A stretch of DNA of 64,000 nucleotides from Planctomycetota bacterium (GTDB lineage Bacteria > Planctomycetota > UBA8742 > UBA2392). The translations under genes were made by a program, and so were the position numbers. This document shows positions 19,587 to 25,023 of the stretch, piece after piece. Within the stretch, counting starts at the first letter, position 1; every line of letters begins with the position of its first letter. The DNA lies in contig JAHBYA010000002.1 of NCBI GenBank assembly GCA_019636195.1, forward strand, positions 82,311-146,310. Direction: 5' to 3'. A model generated the notes under the pieces. That model had not been told where the DNA came from. It made no database searches and saw only the letters and a list, made by a program, of their open reading frames with translations.

Positions 19587-21185
19587 ATGGACCCGGAACG
19601 TGAAACCACCTACTTGTTCCGTCATGCTGTAATGCAGCAGGTCGGGTACGAGTTACAGCCGCCCTCGGCGCGTTCCGCCCTGCATGCAGCCGCCATGGAA
19701 GTCATTGAGTCGCTGTATCCCGACGCGCTGGAAGACCACGCGCTTGAACTCGCGCGTCACGCGTTGCAAGCACGGCAGGGCCAGCCGACTGACCGCGCCA
19801 CCCGCGCTCTGGGACGTAAAGAGGCCAAGTACCTGGCGCTGGCGGCTGCTGTCGCGCGGCGCCGCTTCGACGTGGGGCGCGCGCAGATGCTGCTGCTGGC
19901 GCTGGCCGAGTGCCCATTTGCGGCTCGCGAAGTGCGCGTGCGCGCCCTGCGCCAAGCCGCCGAGACGGGCATGGACGCCGGCCGCAACGCCGAAGCCCAG
20001 CCGATTCTGCATGCGGGGCTGGGCGAGGCGCGGCGCCACAAGCTGGCCTCGGAAGAGGCCCTGATCCTGCTGGCGCTGGCGCGCTCAAGCATGTTGGCCG
20101 GCCGCATGCCTGAAGCGATGGCCTACGGTGACCAGGCCCGCGCCATCGCGGCGGCGACCCGCAGCGCTGAAACCGAGTTTGCCGTGCTGCACGAACTCGG
20201 CGCACTGACCTTCCAGCGCGGCGAGTCAAGCAGCGCAATGGCCCTGTTTGACCAAGCCGCAGAACTTGCGCGGGCAAGTGGCTCGCGGGCGAATCTGGCC
20301 TCGGCGCTGAATCGCGCCGGCGCCGCGCGCGTCATGCTGTTGCGCCTTGACGAGGCAGCAATCCTGCTGGACGAGGCCCTGCAGATCAGCCGGGACATCG
20401 GCGACCTGCGCCTGATCGGTGCGGTGCTGGGCAACCGTGGCGTCATGTTGCGAAAATCAGGAAGGCTGGAAGAAGCAGCCGAGGTGTACCGCCAATCTCT
20501 TGAACACAACCGCCGCTACGGCTTTCGCCAGACCGAAACCACAAATCTTGACAACCTGGGCGTGGTGCTTGGCACGCTGAAGCGCTTTGAAGAGGCGATT
20601 GCGGTGCATGAAGAAGGGATCAAGCTGGCCCGTGAAGCGGGCCTGCAAACCGCGGTCGGCATGGGACTGCTGAACATGTCATTGATCCTGAAGCTGCAGG
20701 GCAAGACAAGTGAAAGCATGCAGCGCCTGGAGGAAGCCGAAGTGATCTTGCGCAGGACCGGCAGCATGATGGGCGTGGGCAACCTCCTGGTCAACCGCTC
20801 CAACATTCACCGCGAGCGGGGCCACTTGTACGAGGCTTTGCGCGACCTGGTGGAGGCCCAGATCGTGTTTCGCGACCTGCGCGATACCCTCAACGTAGCC
20901 GAGATGGAAACCCGCATCTTTGAGGTGCTCTCACTGATGGGCCGCCACGAAGACATCCTTCCCCGCGCCCAGGCCCTTTACGAAACGGCGCTCAAGGACG
21001 CCCTGCCGCGCTTGTATGCGTTTCTAGGCATCGGCTGGGCGGCCTATGCCGCCAGCAAACTGGCCGGTCACGAAGTGCTGGCGCGTACTGCCGCCACCCA
21101 GGCAGTTGCCCTGATTCCCGAGGACGGGTGGGAGGGCCACTCCCAAGTAATTGTGGACGAAATCCACCGGATCGCCGCCGGTTAG
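19587..21185 (+). CDS. TPR protein resembling the tail of cyclase/ATPase regulators
   Basis: 532 residues. It opens with YLFRHAVMQQVGYELQPPS, which closely resembles the helix after the NACHT/STAND ATPase in adenylate-cyclase- or Ser/Thr-kinase-linked TPR regulators (FRHALxREVAYExL). Here, however, no ATPase or signalling domain precedes it. The rest is clear TPR: ALNRAGAARVMLLRLDEAAI, NLDNLGVVLGTLKRFEEAI, MGLLNMSLILKLQGKTSES. Either it is a domain fragment split from a larger regulator or a free-standing TPR adaptor. It runs convergently into the methyltransferase gene and overlaps its 3' end by 4 bp. Confidence 0.85.
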   Translation: MDPERETTYLFRHAVMQQVGYELQPPSARSALHAAAMEVIESLYPDALEDHALELARHALQARQGQPTDRATRALGRKEAKYLALAAAVARRRFDVGRAQMLLLALAECPFAAREVRVRALRQAAETGMDAGRNAEAQPILHAGLGEARRHKLASEEALILLALARSSMLAGRMPEAMAYGDQARAIAAATRSAETEFAVLHELGALTFQRGESSSAMALFDQAAELARASGSRANLASALNRAGAARVMLLRLDEAAILLDEALQISRDIGDLRLIGAVLGNRGVMLRKSGRLEEAAEVYRQSLEHNRRYGFRQTETTNLDNLGVVLGTLKRFEEAIAVHEEGIKLAREAGLQTAVGMGLLNMSLILKLQGKTSESMQRLEEAEVILRRTGSMMGVGNLLVNRSNIHRERGHLYEALRDLVEAQIVFRDLRDTLNVAEMETRIFEVLSLMGRHEDILPRAQALYETALKDALPRLYAFLGIGWAAYAASKLAGHEVLARTAATQAVALIPEDGWEGHSQVIVDEIHRIAAG

Positions 21186-21973
21186 GCGAAAGCCCGGAAG
21201 TTCATGCCGTGCAGGCGCAGGCGGCTTGAAACTCTGGCACCGGCGTCGGTGCCCCCGAATGCGTTGAACCGCTCCACCACCTGCCCGTGCTCAAAACCCG
21301 CGTGGTGGGCCCAGCGCAGCAGCTCTGCCTCCGGCAGAGCACCGGCCACTCAGGACGCCCACAGCTTGGGGTCCGCCAGCTCAGCGGGTTTAAAGCTGCC
21401 CATGATCATGGCGTCGGCCAGGTACAGCCGCCCGCCGGGCTTGAGCACCCGGCGCAGCTCGCGCAATGCCGCGGGCTTGTCGGCGCACAGGTTCAGCACT
21501 CCGTTGCTGATGACGACATCCGCGCTTACGTCGCGGACCGGCAGCTTTTCAAAGCGCCCCACGCGCAGGTCAACGCGCGGCAGCATGCCCGTTTCGTATG
21601 CACCCTGCCGGGCGATGTCCAGCATCGCGGGCGTGGCATCAACGCCGATCACGCGGCCCCGCGGGCCCACGCGCATGGCGGCCACCAGCAGGTCCATGCC
21701 CGCGCCGCAGCCCACATCCAGCACCGTCTCGCCGGGGTTGTAGGTTCCCGCCCGGTGCGGGTTGCCCAGGCCGGCAAAGCGGCGCACGTTTTCGTCGGGC
21801 AACTGGTCAAGCTCGGCGGGGTCGTAACGCAGTCGCTCAATGGCGTAGTCATAGCCCGTGTGAAAGTGAAACTCGTCGTCGGGCGTTAGGGCCAGGCGTT
21901 CGTACTCGGCGGCGATGGCGCGTTGCAGGCGGCCCGTGTCGGGCGATGTCGGGCAGTAGTCGGCGGTGATCAT
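21182..21973 (-). CDS. ArsM/UbiE-like methyltransferase, candidate selenoprotein (in-frame TGA)
   Basis: From the ATG at 21973 (GAGGA about 8 nt upstream) the frame runs 207 codons to a TGA at 21350-21352, then continues open in the same frame for 55 codons to TAA at 21182-21184. The combined 263 residues form a complete class I methyltransferase. Motif I is VLDVGCGAGMDLLVAA (84-99), post-I is VIGVDATPAMLDIAR, then ISNGVLNLCADK (Cys173) and RVLKPGGRL. The segment across TGA reads KLWAS-U-VAGALPEAE, and the tail (RWAHHAGF, VVERFNAFGG, HGMNFRAF) is the expected family C-terminus. In related arsenite-type methyltransferases this position is a conserved Cys (W/Y-x2-C-x2-GAL), so TGA as selenocysteine fits. 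A SECIS-like hairpin follows. The alternative is a recent nonsense mutation. It is third of a three-gene operon; the substrate (As, Se or other) is unknown. Confidence 0.82.
21322..21340 (-). promoter_or_regulatory. Bacterial SECIS-like hairpin downstream of in-frame UGA
   Basis: On the minus strand, after UGA and a 9-nt spacer (GUGGCCGGU), GCUCUGCC (21340-21333) pairs perfectly with GGCAGAGC (21329-21322) around a GGA loop. That gives an 8-bp stem, a minimal 3-nt apical loop starting with G, and 17 nt between UGA and loop. These values sit within the bacterial SECIS rules I know (loop about 16-37 nt after UGA, G among the first loop bases). A chance GC-rich stem is possible, but the fit of position, stem and loop is good. 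Confidence 0.7.
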
Positions 21974-22035: not shown

Positions 22036-22950
22036 CTAGCTGAACAGCGGGTACACCTGCTCAAGTTTTGCGCGCCACGCGGGGTCCAGCGCGCCGACCG
22101 CTTCAAGAAACTTGGGGTGCGACATGCCGCTGCCCAGGTACGTCCAGCGGTTGGACTGGTGCTGCACGCGCATGAACTGCTCGCGCTGCTGCGGCGTCAG
22201 CGTGCGGCCTGTCGCCGTTTGCAGGGCCTGCAAATCGAACTCGGTCTGCTGTTTCAGGCCTTCGTCAAGAAAGCCGCCGATCTTGAGGTAGTCTTCAAGG
22301 CCGGCTTGTATGCCCGCCGGGTCAAGCTCGCGGGCGATGTTGAAGACCATCAGCGTGTCCAGCTTCGCGTGCTGGGCTTCTTCAAGCCAGTGGTTGCGCA
22401 GCAGGCTTTTGAACTGCGGGTCAAGGTCCTGGTCGCGGTCGATGCTGTCCAGAAAGTGGCGCTGGGTCATCCATTCGATGTGCAGCGTCACCAGCGCCAC
22501 GCCCAGCGCGCTGTGCGACAGAATGTGCTGCGCCACAGCCTCGGGCGGGCCGATCATGGCGCAGTCGGTGCCGAAGCCCGCGACAAACTCCTCGCGAAAG
22601 CGCTTGAACAACTGGATGTGCTTGGCTTCCTCGGCGGCAAACGCAAGCATGGCGCGGGTCTTGAAGTCGTCAGGCTGAAGGCTGCCGCGGGTGTGGTCCA
22701 TGACGAACGGCAGGATGAACTCTTCGACCAGCCCGAAGATGGCCAGGTATGCGTGGCCGCGAATCTGGTTCAGCACGCGCTGTTCGTCGTCGCTGAGAAA
22801 GTCCAGCTCGTTCACGCGGGCCAGCGACTCGGGCATGAAGCGGCGCGAAAAGTCCAGCCGCTTGTCGCCGCCGATGATGTCTTCAATCTTCCAGTTGACC
22901 TGCTGGCTGGCGGCCAGAAGTGAGGCGTAGTGATAGTTCTGCATCTGCAT
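22036..22950 (-). CDS. Ferritin-like di-iron protein, AurF-like oxygenase candidate
   Basis: 304 residues, mostly helical. It carries a complete di-iron carboxylate set: Glu77 (LVEEFILPF), Glu108 with His111 (EEAKH), Glu159 (LHIEW), and Glu191 with His194 (EEAQH), i.e. two E-x2-H motifs plus two lone Glu, as in ferritin-like oxygenases such as the AurF family. It should activate O2 to oxidise a small substrate or act as an oxidase; the substrate is not evident. AAGGAG lies 7 nt before the ATG. It is the middle gene between a DUF4242 protein and the TGA-containing methyltransferase, suggesting a pathway that oxidises and methylates a small molecule or metalloid (inference). Confidence 0.8.
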   Translation of the reverse strand: MQMQNYHYASLLAASQQVNWKIEDIIGGDKRLDFSRRFMPESLARVNELDFLSDDEQRVLNQIRGHAYLAIFGLVEEFILPFVMDHTRGSLQPDDFKTRAMLAFAAEEAKHIQLFKRFREEFVAGFGTDCAMIGPPEAVAQHILSHSALGVALVTLHIEWMTQRHFLDSIDRDQDLDPQFKSLLRNHWLEEAQHAKLDTLMVFNIARELDPAGIQAGLEDYLKIGGFLDEGLKQQTEFDLQALQTATGRTLTPQQREQFMRVQHQSNRWTYLGSGMSHPKFLEAVGALDPAWRAKLEQVYPLFS

Positions 22951-22987: not shown

Positions 22988-23281
22988 TCAGGCGGCGTTG
23001 ACGGGGTCAGGCCGGATAATCACGGTGTCGGCGACCTCGGCGATTTCGTCGGCGGGCATGTTGACGCGGCGCGCGTGCTCGCGGATGGCGTCGGGGCTTG
23101 TGGCCTCGTAGATGCAGACGGTGCCGAGGTCGCCGTTTTCTTCGCTTACGACATAGCTGCGGATCCAGCGCACATCGTTCGGCATTTCGTCGTTGCCGAT
23201 GCGGGCGCTGATTTCGGCGGTGGATGCCAGGCTTTCGGCGCAGGTCCAGCCGTTGCGGCGGCGAATCATGTACAGTTTCAT
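22988..23281 (-). CDS. DUF4242-like small protein
   Basis: 97 residues with the pattern of DUF4242 (SCO4226-type nickel-responsive or nickel-binding) proteins: VRWIRSYVVSEENGD, TVCIYEATSPDAIREHARR, NMPADEIAEVADTVI. A GGGAG Shine-Dalgarno precedes the ATG in a context (GGGAGACAAGC) nearly identical to that of the next gene (GGAGACAAGCC), supporting joint expression. It is first in the operon with the di-iron protein and the TGA-containing methyltransferase, and is divergent from the winged-helix regulator at 23392 across 110 bp. A metal-binding or signalling role is known only loosely for the family. Confidence 0.78.
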   Translation of the reverse strand: MKLYMIRRRNGWTCAESLASTAEISARIGNDEMPNDVRWIRSYVVSEENGDLGTVCIYEATSPDAIREHARRVNMPADEIAEVADTVIIRPDPVNAA

Positions 23282-23356
23282 GCTTGTCTCCCTTTGCTGC
23301 CCGCGGCCTTTCCGTCGGGCGTGCGCGAAAGGTACCCCCCGCGGCCTTCGTTCTCC

Positions 23357-23384
23357 TTTCGCCGGGCTTATCGATTGCTTATCT
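23357..23384 (+). promoter_or_regulatory. Candidate promoter of the winged-helix regulator
   Basis: TTTCGC (23357-23362), a 16-bp spacer and TTATCT (23379-23384) end 7 nt before the ATG at 23392. A similar TTTCGC-N16-TATACT arrangement precedes the gene at 51831. No Shine-Dalgarno is present, so a leaderless transcript is plausible. Confidence 0.4.
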
Positions 23385-23391
23385 TTGGCGC

Positions 23392-25023
23392 ATGGCCCGA
23401 TTCGGCGACTTTGAGCTTGATCAGCAGCGCCTTGAGCTGCGCCTGCGCGGAAAGGCGATTGAGCTGCAGCCGCTGGTGTTTCAGCTGCTGTGCTACCTGG
23501 TCAGGCACCGCGACCGCGTGGTCACGAAAAACGAATTGCTTGAAAACCTGTGGCCCGACGCGCATGTGACCGAGTCGTCGTTGCAGCGCGTGGTAAGCCT
23601 TGCGCGCAGCGCCCTGCGCACGGGCGGCATGGAAGACGCGCTGAAAAACTTCCCGCGCGCGGGCTACCGCTTCATGGCACAAGTCGGCGCCGAGCCGCCC
23701 GCGCAAGGCCCGGCCGCGCTTGAAGCCGCCGCCGACGACGCCAAGTGGCAGGGGCAGCTTGCGCAATCGGTCAGCCTGCTTGAGCAGGCGCTGGCGCAGT
23801 ACCGCGCGGCGGCCGACAGCCGCGGCGCGGCGCGGGTGGCGATACGGCTGGCGCGCGTACAGGAAGAACGGCGCGAAATCGCGCCCGCATCCGGCTGGCT
23901 GGCGCTGGCGGGCACGCTGTTGCGCGATGTCCCGCGCTGCCGCGAGCACGGCCTGCACTGCTGGATGGCCTCGCAGATTGCGTTCGCCAACGACCAGCAT
24001 GACGGAGCAATAGAACACGCGCGACGCTGCCACGAGATCGCCCGCGAGCTTGGCGACGCCGAACTTGAGGCGCTGGCGCTGGCGGCGCGCGGCCACGCGC
24101 TGATGGGCCAGGGCGATATCGCCGCTGCCCGCGCAAGCCACGAAGAGGCGGCGGCGCTGACCCTTTCAGGCGCTGTCAGCCCCGAGCCGGGGGGCTTTAT
24201 CCTGTGCTCGGTGATTACCAGCGCCGCCAACCGCGCCGATTGGGGCTGCGCGTCGCAATGGACCGAACAGTTTGCCCGCTGGTGTGAACGCCACGGCAAG
24301 CCGGGCTATCCCGGCCTGTGCCGCATGCATCGCGCCGAGGTGCTGCATTTTAAGGGCGATCTGCCCGCCGCGCGGCAGGAAATTGAAGCCGCCTGCACCA
24401 TGCTGCGTGAAGCGGCGCCATGGGCAGAAGGCGACGCCTGGCGCGTGCTGGGCGACATTCACCTGGCGCAGGGCGACCTGAAAGGCGCCGAGCAGGCGTA
24501 CCAGCGGGCCTACACACTGGGCTGGGAGCCGCAGCCGGGGCTGGCCTGGATGCACATGGCGCGCGGCAACGCCGATGCCGCCGTGGCAAGCCTTGAGCGC
24601 GCGATTGAAAGCGCCAACTGGTACAACCGCGAACGCCGCACGCTGCTGCTGGCGAATCTCGTGGCGCTGGCCGCGGCGGCCGGCCTGACCGAAAGGGCGC
24701 AAACGGCGATGGCCGAGCTTGAAAAGCGCCAGCCCGGCAACTTGCCGGCGCAAAGCGCGCTGATGGCGCGGGCGCGCTCAAGGCTGGCGATCGCGCAAGG
24801 CCGGCACAAGGAAGCCCTGGCCGACATTCAAAAGGCAAGGCTGAACTGGCTGAGCATAGGCGCAACACTGGAAGCGGCACTTGAGCACATGGAAGCCGGC
24901 ATGGTGTTGAAGCAAATGGGCGACAAAACCGCCGCCAGCCTCGAGTTCAACGCCGCCGCCGAGACATTCAAAAGCGCCGGCGCCAAGCAACTGCAGAAAC
25001 GCTGCGAAGAGCTGCGAAAGTGA
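23392..25023 (+). CDS. OmpR/CadC-type winged-helix regulator with TPR domain
   Basis: 543 residues from the ATG at 23392. The N-terminal 100 residues are a Trans_reg_C winged helix: FGDFELDQQRLELRLRG, IELQPLVFQLLCYLVRH, NELLENLWPDAHVTESSLQR (recognition helix), ending RAGYRFMAQVG. A long TPR-like helical domain follows (SLLEQALAQYRAAADSRG, DLKGAEQAYQRAYTLG, SLERAIESANWYNRE). There is no receiver domain and no membrane helix, so it is not a two-component or ToxR-type protein. This architecture is common in planctomycetes and Acidobacteria and probably senses through the TPR part. It is divergent from the DUF4242/di-iron/methyltransferase operon and is the obvious candidate regulator (inference). 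Confidence 0.9.
   Translation: MARFGDFELDQQRLELRLRGKAIELQPLVFQLLCYLVRHRDRVVTKNELLENLWPDAHVTESSLQRVVSLARSALRTGGMEDALKNFPRAGYRFMAQVGAEPPAQGPAALEAAADDAKWQGQLAQSVSLLEQALAQYRAAADSRGAARVAIRLARVQEERREIAPASGWLALAGTLLRDVPRCREHGLHCWMASQIAFANDQHDGAIEHARRCHEIARELGDAELEALALAARGHALMGQGDIAAARASHEEAAALTLSGAVSPEPGGFILCSVITSAANRADWGCASQWTEQFARWCERHGKPGYPGLCRMHRAEVLHFKGDLPAARQEIEAACTMLREAAPWAEGDAWRVLGDIHLAQGDLKGAEQAYQRAYTLGWEPQPGLAWMHMARGNADAAVASLERAIESANWYNRERRTLLLANLVALAAAAGLTERAQTAMAELEKRQPGNLPAQSALMARARSRLAIAQGRHKEALADIQKARLNWLSIGATLEAALEHMEAGMVLKQMGDKTAASLEFNAAAETFKSAGAKQLQKRCEELRK

What the first reader, a model, noticed from the sequence alone, without database searches (positions are those of the whole stretch)
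21182..21973. Candidate selenoprotein: ArsM/UbiE-like methyltransferase with in-frame UGA at a conserved Cys position
The frame stops at TGA (21350-21352) in the middle of the domain and then continues open in the same frame for 55 codons to TAA. The continuation is exactly the expected family C-terminus, and the TGA falls where relatives have Cys in the W/Y-x2-C-x2-GAL motif. Continued coding quality after the TGA argues against an old pseudogene. Other genes in the window use TGA as an ordinary stop, so wholesale recoding is excluded. Sec-containing members of this methyltransferase family have, to my knowledge, been noted in selenoproteome surveys, but the pairing with a di-iron protein and a DUF4242 protein looks undescribed.
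Basis: partly seen in the sequence, partly recalled or inferred. Interest (0 to 1): 0.93.

Follow-up and report, generated by a model that had tools for sequence, protein, structure and literature searches.

The report
Selenocysteine methyltransferase, ArsM fold, not ArsM
A planctomycete gene with a stop codon in its middle carries the signals for reading that stop as selenocysteine; the protein lacks two of the three arsenic-binding cysteines of its relatives, and because more distant relatives are fused, across the same stop codon, to an enzyme domain of the kind that makes dimethyl sulfide, it likely methylates sulfur or selenium rather than arsenic.

Summary
The frame 21973-21182 (-) has one stop, TGA 21352-21350, then 55 codons to TAA. 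The genome encodes tRNA-Sec, SelA, SelB and a SelD with its own in-frame UGA. In relatives the codon at this column is TGA 61, TGC 52, TGT 11 of 124 covering matches; one later relative has TGG. All seven pairs of a SECIS-type hairpin hold in 37 of 52 distinct TGA sequences and 0 of 63 Cys sequences, with compensatory changes. It is almost surely a selenoprotein.

The arsenic label does not fit. Of CmArsM's As(III) ligands C72, C174 and C224 only C224 remains, as Sec. All 52 reliable Sec rows sampled lack the other two; none of 11 three-Cys ArsMs has Sec.

New here: in five planctomycete genomes the Sec domain continues in one frame, across the UGA, into an MddA (methanethiol methyltransferase) domain. 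Cys forms adjoin mddA elsewhere. In the window the partners are an AurF/CmlI-fold di-iron protein and a DUF4242 protein; that trio recurs. I infer S- or Se-methylation; the substrate is untested. Sec "arsenite methyltransferases" are already in print.

The parts
21182..21973 (-). Methyltransferase gene, 263 codons with TGA read as Sec; ArsM fold
   Evidence: frame; families; model pLDDT 89.7, nearest PDB folds ArsM
21350..21352 (-). In-frame TGA, codon 208, at the column of CmArsM Cys224
21316..21340 (-). SECIS-type hairpin: 8-bp stem with loop GGA, starting 9 nt after the TGA; approximate span
   Evidence: fold; covariation; 37 of 52 TGA relatives against 0 of 63 Cys relatives keep all seven inner pairs
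22036..22950 (-). AurF/CmlI-fold di-iron protein, 304 aa, 62 bp upstream
22988..23281 (-). DUF4242 (SCO4226-like) protein, 97 aa, first gene of the three
   Evidence: 65.1 bits, cut-off 28.5; ends in TGA
23224..25023 (+). Divergent reading frame with a winged-helix (Trans_reg_C) and TPR part; possible regulator; the true start is probably inside this frame
   Evidence: Trans_reg_C 46.3 bits, TPR_12 53.4 bits

Best explanation
The TGA at 21352-21350 stands where relatives encode cysteine and is predicted to be read as selenocysteine, giving a 263-residue ArsM-fold methyltransferase that likely methylates a sulfur or selenium atom rather than arsenite. Shown by sequence: Sec genes in the genome, TGA/Cys exchange at one column, a covarying hairpin found with TGA forms and not with Cys forms, absence of the other two arsenic-ligand cysteines, and UGA-spanning fusions to MddA in relatives. 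Inferred: Sec208, placed as Cys224 is in CmArsM, would hold one soft atom (sulfide, sulfane sulfur, a thiol, or the selenium counterpart) beside SAM for methylation, giving methanethiol or methaneselenol. In fused or neighbouring relatives MddA would add the second methyl. In the window, whose genome shows no MddA, the AurF-like di-iron protein would act on the methylated product, with DUF4242 as a small accessory protein.
For: tRNA-Sec, SelA, SelB, SelD. TGA 61, TGC 52, TGT 11 of 124. Hairpin: 41 of 52 TGA against 3 of 63 Cys sequences have a stem of 6 or more with G in the first two loop bases; all seven inner pairs 37 of 52 against 0 of 63, 11 different stems, pairing 0.863 in register against at most 0.659 when slid. 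Cys72 and Cys174 positions are Leu69 and Gly158; the same loss in all 52 reliable Sec rows. Full one-frame fusions Sec-methyltransferase::MddA in 5 of 397 genomes, MddA domain 349, 361 and 343 bits in the three scanned, cut-off 270. mddA directly upstream of Cys forms in six proteobacterial loci (331 bits for the one scanned). 42 of 120 database hits to the fusion begin just after the Sec codon.
Against: No biochemistry. The window genome has no MddA, and no MddA lies near the window gene's own closest Sec relatives, so the sulfur link rests on more distant relatives. The full fusion is rare: none in the phylum sample of 392, none in 14. Canonical ArsM is still the nearest solved fold. The lone hairpin is unremarkable. 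Exceptions at the column: Gly 4 and Ser 1 of 120, TGG in L172 although that genome has SelA and SelB. Flanking genes of relatives show no clear shared sulfur pathway. The di-iron step has no direct support.
Confidence: 0.5

Rival explanations
1. It is a Sec-containing arsenite or other metalloid methyltransferase after all: Sec208 would be the one strong ligand, the others being supplied by glutathione or by partner proteins.
For: Nearest solved folds are ArsM; nearest named families are arsenite methyltransferases; Sec arsenite methyltransferase is an accepted entry in reviews.
Against: Cys72 and Cys174 positions are Leu and Gly, while an ArsM survey found 72, 174 and 224 conserved and used at least three of four cysteines as its entry test. 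Score 185.7 against the cut-off 263. Relatives adjoin or are fused to MddA.
Confidence: 0.22
2. It is a small-molecule methyltransferase of a specialised biosynthetic operon: the AurF-like oxygenase would oxidise an amine or similar group and this enzyme would methylate the product, Sec serving substrate binding.
For: Operon with an AurF/CmlI-fold protein, whose known kin make natural products (AurF, CmlI titles); recurrence of the trio; a possible dedicated regulator.
Against: No other biosynthetic gene was identified next to it; MddA fusion and adjacency in the same enzyme branch; close relatives without the di-iron gene (31 of 46 loci, lower bound by flank length).
Confidence: 0.2
3. The TGA is a true stop: the 207-residue protein is the product, or the gene is freshly broken.
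For: Pfam scores hardly change with the tail; the database holds it as a 207-aa protein (P0001).
Against: TGA at the same column in many lineages and phyla, TGA-specific hairpin, Sec machinery, conserved tail, and in relatives a whole MddA domain beyond the TGA.
Confidence: 0.03
4. The UGA is read as another residue (Trp or Cys) without selenium.
For: L172 has TGG at the position.
Against: Full Sec machinery, Cys as partner residue in 113 of 120, hairpin tied to TGA.
Confidence: 0.03

Closest known systems
Sec arsenite methyltransferase (UxxG), and the NCBIfam selenoproteins NF041537, NF041536, NF047649
   Same: Homologous methyltransferase domain, Sec in a U-x-x-G motif (here U-V-A-G; for the motif, passages of PMC13188914)
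   Different: Scores far below their cut-offs (205.5 of 510, 190.2 of 575, 191.8 of 460); no AhpD, DUF2284 or UXPK part; whether those proteins keep Cys72 and Cys174 was not tested
Canonical ArsM/AS3MT (CmArsM 6cx6, CrArsM 5evj)
   Same: Fold: TM 0.72 and 0.71; Cys224 position conserved as Sec
   Different: Cys72 and Cys174 positions are Leu and Gly
MddA, methanethiol S-methyltransferase (NF045656)
   Same: Fused to or next to relatives of this protein
   Different: An unrelated membrane enzyme; absent from the window genome
MddH, MddM1 and MddM2, soluble H2S/methanethiol methyltransferases (PMC12904073, abstract and passages)
   Same: Soluble-type SAM methyltransferase fold of the UbiE/UbiG kind; the proposed reaction
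   Different: Sequences were not compared here; no Sec reported in the passages seen
AurF and CmlI di-iron N-oxygenases
   Different: 11-14% identity, just under the Pfam AurF cut-off; substrate unknown

Membership tests
Bacterial selenoprotein | Sec machinery in the genome | tested here: met
   tRNA-Sec, SelA, SelB, SelD
Bacterial selenoprotein | UGA exchanged with Cys codons in homologues | tested here: met
   TGA 61, TGC 52, TGT 11 of 124
Bacterial selenoprotein | SECIS hairpin just downstream of the UGA | tested here: met
   Covariation and TGA/Cys contrast; the single-sequence fold is inconclusive; no Rfam SECIS match
Bacterial selenoprotein | Selenium in the product | not testable with these tools
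   Needs 75Se label or mass spectrometry
ArsM arsenite methyltransferase | Cysteines 72, 174 and 224 (CmArsM) | tested here: not met
   Leu69, Gly158, Sec208; criterion from PMC5552862 passages
ArsM arsenite methyltransferase | NCBIfam NF008823 cut-off 263 bits | tested here: not met
   185.7 bits
ArsM arsenite methyltransferase | SAM-binding methyltransferase fold | tested here: met
NF041537 ArsM/AhpD selenoprotein | Cut-off 510 bits and AhpD domain | tested here: not met
   205.5 bits over residues 9-235
MddH/MddM sulfide methyltransferases | Sequence membership and activity | not tested
   No reference sequences at hand; function only proposed
AurF-like di-iron oxygenase (neighbour) | AurF/CmlI fold and metal ligands | tested here: met
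AurF-like di-iron oxygenase (neighbour) | Pfam PF11583 gathering score 29.6 | tested here: inconclusive
   29.5 bits

The most novel reading that the evidence does not exclude
A branch of selenoproteins now labelled arsenite methyltransferases is in truth a set of sulfur or selenium methyltransferases that work through one selenolate: selenoenzymes of volatile sulfur and selenium production. In some planctomycetes the enzyme is one polypeptide with MddA, so the dimethyl sulfide step is made only if UGA is read as Sec, tying volatile sulfur output to selenium supply; in the window lineage a di-iron oxygenase takes MddA's place.
Probability: 0.35. Interest if true: 0.82.

Novelty: new variant of a known kind. 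Interest (0 to 1): 0.64.

Why it matters
It suggests that a group of proteins named arsenite methyltransferase is misnamed and gives a plain biochemical test. It shows a selenocysteine codon inside a two-enzyme fusion that databases cut in half: 42 of 120 listed database relatives of the fusion start just after the UGA. If right, selenium supply would control part of the dimethyl sulfide or dimethyl selenide output of some bacteria.

Tried and rejected
Broken gene or wholesale UGA recoding: rejected (the neighbouring DUF4242 gene ends in TGA). Arsenic function: kept as a rival.

What led nowhere or spoke against: lone-hairpin folding and Rfam (one chance snoRNA match). Codon-position conservation before and after the TGA was only weakly telling. 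No MddA in the window genome. No full fusion in 392 phylum genomes or in 14 genomes of one class. Flanking genes of relatives gave no clear pathway: 140 frames, the first 25 of 154 families shown. SelB and SelA are also in same-family genomes without the TGA form (12 and 13 of 13), so the Sec trait does not track this gene. My first test for cut-off fusions (alignment starting within 12 residues of the Sec) gave 0 of 120; the second half of the same script showed them starting at the 13th. One SelD translation was out of frame and was repeated.

Faulty or dropped rows: the row L046_U_8056 was mis-extracted (it repeats the second copy), so its 53 Sec rows (window included) are 52 reliable ones; that row and L096 were left out of the tree (114 rows). 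Seven duplicate loci were left out. One search includes duplicates; searches use distinct 45-base stretches of relatives, the window not among them. One search took at most four flanking frames per locus, chosen by a base-composition rule and cut to 500 aa, from 38 of the 46 loci; the window, L046, L048, L063, L068, L073, L081 and L082 were not given. Searches were given 22 of the genomes with TGA forms, not all.

Full report
Observation. The minus-strand frame 21973-21182 has one stop, TGA at 21352-21350, and then 55 codons to TAA. It is the last of three genes in one direction: DUF4242 (23281-22988), a di-iron protein (22950-22036) and the methyltransferase, with gaps of 37 and 62 bp. A GAGGA stretch lies 7 bases before the ATG (read by eye). 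The 3' end overlaps by 4 bases the end of a convergent TPR gene (19587-21185).

The genome can make selenoproteins. G000 (3.93 Mb, 94.9% complete) has a tRNA-Sec (69.2 bits; ARAGORN reads anticodon tca), SelA (532 bits), SelB (340 bits) and SelD (396 bits), the last with its own in-frame TGA in GAGUGCK. The second hit over the tRNA-Sec cut-off (50 bits) is a tRNA-Ser by ARAGORN. Of 22 genomes with TGA forms given to searches show SelB, 21 SelA, and all 22 at least one. But 12 and 13 of 13 same-family genomes without a TGA form have them too, so the trait is family-wide. Of two genomes with Cys forms beside MddA, G733 has neither and G725 both.

The codon. In 120 database relatives column 208 is Cys 113, Gly 4, Ser 1, missing 2. 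A quick tree of 114 rows needs 4 changes between Sec and Cys, of which well-supported branches force 2. The window falls with P0003 (taken as Sec from its end; its DNA was not seen), the Cys form P0002 (about 60% identical), both L046 copies and L048 in a set of 5 Sec and 1 Cys rows (98% SH-aLRT). L172, from a later search, has TGG, Trp.

The hairpin. After the TGA the window has GCUCUGCC-GGA-GGCAGAGC, the loop starting 17 nt after the codon. Alone it is unremarkable. Across 52 distinct TGA and 63 distinct Cys sequences of relatives, a stem of at least 6 bp with G in the first two loop bases is found in 41 of 52 against 3 of 63. All seven inner pairs hold in 37 of 52, in 11 different stems (for instance CUCUGCC/GGCAGAG, CUCUCCU/AGGAGAG, CUCUGCA/UGCAGAG), against 0 of 63; in-register pairing is 0.863, the best slid value 0.659, Cys forms 0.374. 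L062, a Cys form, encodes the same GALPEAEL peptide as the window without the stem, so the peptide does not force it. Several of the remaining TGA sequences seem to have a shifted stem, by eye.

Not an ordinary ArsM. In the alignment to CmArsM, residue 208 meets Cys224, while Cys72 and Cys174 meet Leu69 and Gly158 (numbers counted from its alignment). Of 116 sequences, the window included, the 11 with all three Cys have no Sec; the 52 reliable Sec rows have Val or Leu, and Gly; so do, with one Ala, the other 52 Cys rows. The sample was drawn by likeness to the window, so it does not show that three-Cys ArsMs never have Sec. An ArsM survey found 72, 174 and 224 conserved and took at least three of four cysteines as its entry test (PMC5552862, passages). 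NCBIfam: 185.7 bits against 263 for arsenite methyltransferase, 205.5 against 510 for the nearest selenoprotein model. The model (pLDDT 89.7) still matches ArsM best (CrArsM TM 0.71; CmArsM with As(III) and SAH TM 0.72, rmsd 2.3). So it has the ArsM fold but fails the ArsM ligand test.

Sulfur link. In three Thiocapsa, two Thioalkalivibrio and one other proteobacterial locus an mddA-like gene lies directly upstream of the Cys form (one scanned: 331 bits, cut-off 270; L063 holds only its end); in L051 it is about 3 kb away. In a Planctomycetales genome (L096, the same sequence as G464) one frame runs from the methyltransferase through its TGA into a complete MddA domain (349 bits). Among 397 genomes of one class this full fusion, with exactly one stop, a TGA, is in five: G464, G618, G582, G446, G462, the last four 65-68% identical to the first; G618 and G446 were also scanned (MddA 361 and 343 bits). 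G733, G725 and G718 have a Cys form followed in the same frame by MddA with one or two stops between; in G534 a TGA form is followed at once by MddA in another frame. Of 120 listed database hits to the fusion, 42 begin at the first Met after the Sec codon and carry the methyltransferase tail before MddA; one, P0280, is on a contig of the same length as G446 C2, where a fusion lies. From the methyltransferase start the MddA part can be reached only through the UGA, which supports read-through in that branch. MddA and related enzymes methylate H2S and methanethiol (PMC12904073, abstract and passages). The window genome has no MddA match.

Mechanism proposed. Shown: the conserved chalcogen, its place in the fold, the genetic signals for Sec, the partners. 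Inferred: Sec208 would hold one sulfur or selenium atom next to SAM for methylation; MddA in relatives, and perhaps the di-iron protein in the window, would act next. The substrate, the role of DUF4242 and the order of steps are untested.

Known and new. Two reviews (PMC13188914, passages and reference list; PMC9312934, passages) list Sec arsenite methyltransferase; the first gives the UxxG motif and fused forms from Haft and Tolstoy 2025, which I could not read. Searches: MddA with selenoprotein, 0 papers; selenoprotein with ArsM and arsenic methylation, 0; methanethiol with selenocysteine, methyltransferase and selenoprotein, 10 papers, 7 listed, none on this by title; DUF4242 with methyltransferase, 1, unrelated by title; MddA with fusion or full name, 22, 10 listed, none on this by title. 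These cover open-licence papers only. I file it as a new variant of a known kind: a Sec methyltransferase of this superfamily is known; the lone-chalcogen reading, the UGA-spanning MddA fusion and the di-iron/DUF4242 operon were not found described in those searches.

Noticed in passing
L046 7207-8802 (genome G237, Planctomycetota FR_29): Two Sec methyltransferase genes in tandem behind the di-iron gene, each with its own TGA and hairpin.
   Followed up: partly
L048 7155-7616 (genome G104): The first of the two tandem copies lacks its middle, Sec codon included, and joins the N-terminal part to the C-terminal part in frame.
   Followed up: no
L172 (genome G490): TGG (Trp) instead of TGA at the Sec codon, with the usual hairpin-like bases kept; the genome has SelA and SelB. 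Reversion, error or real Trp form is open.
   Followed up: partly
P0242-P0283 (42 of the 120 database proteins listed): Proteins annotated as Ste14-like or MddA that look like the back half of Sec fusions, starting at the first Met after the UGA.
   Followed up: partly
L046 6162-7157 and 13533-14219: Next to the Sec pair: a hemerythrin/YdhR-type protein and an F420-type NADP oxidoreductase.
   Followed up: no
L072 6346-6915: An OsmC-like gene, weakly like the OsmC-related (seleno)protein model (46.4 bits, cut-off 95), lies between the di-iron gene and the Sec methyltransferase.
   Followed up: no
window 19587-21185: TPR protein, weakly like AfsR-type regulators, convergent with the methyltransferase and overlapping its end by 4 bases.
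   Followed up: no
L014 (genome G000, C22): SelD of the window genome is itself a selenoprotein candidate with TGA in GAGUGCK.
   Followed up: yes
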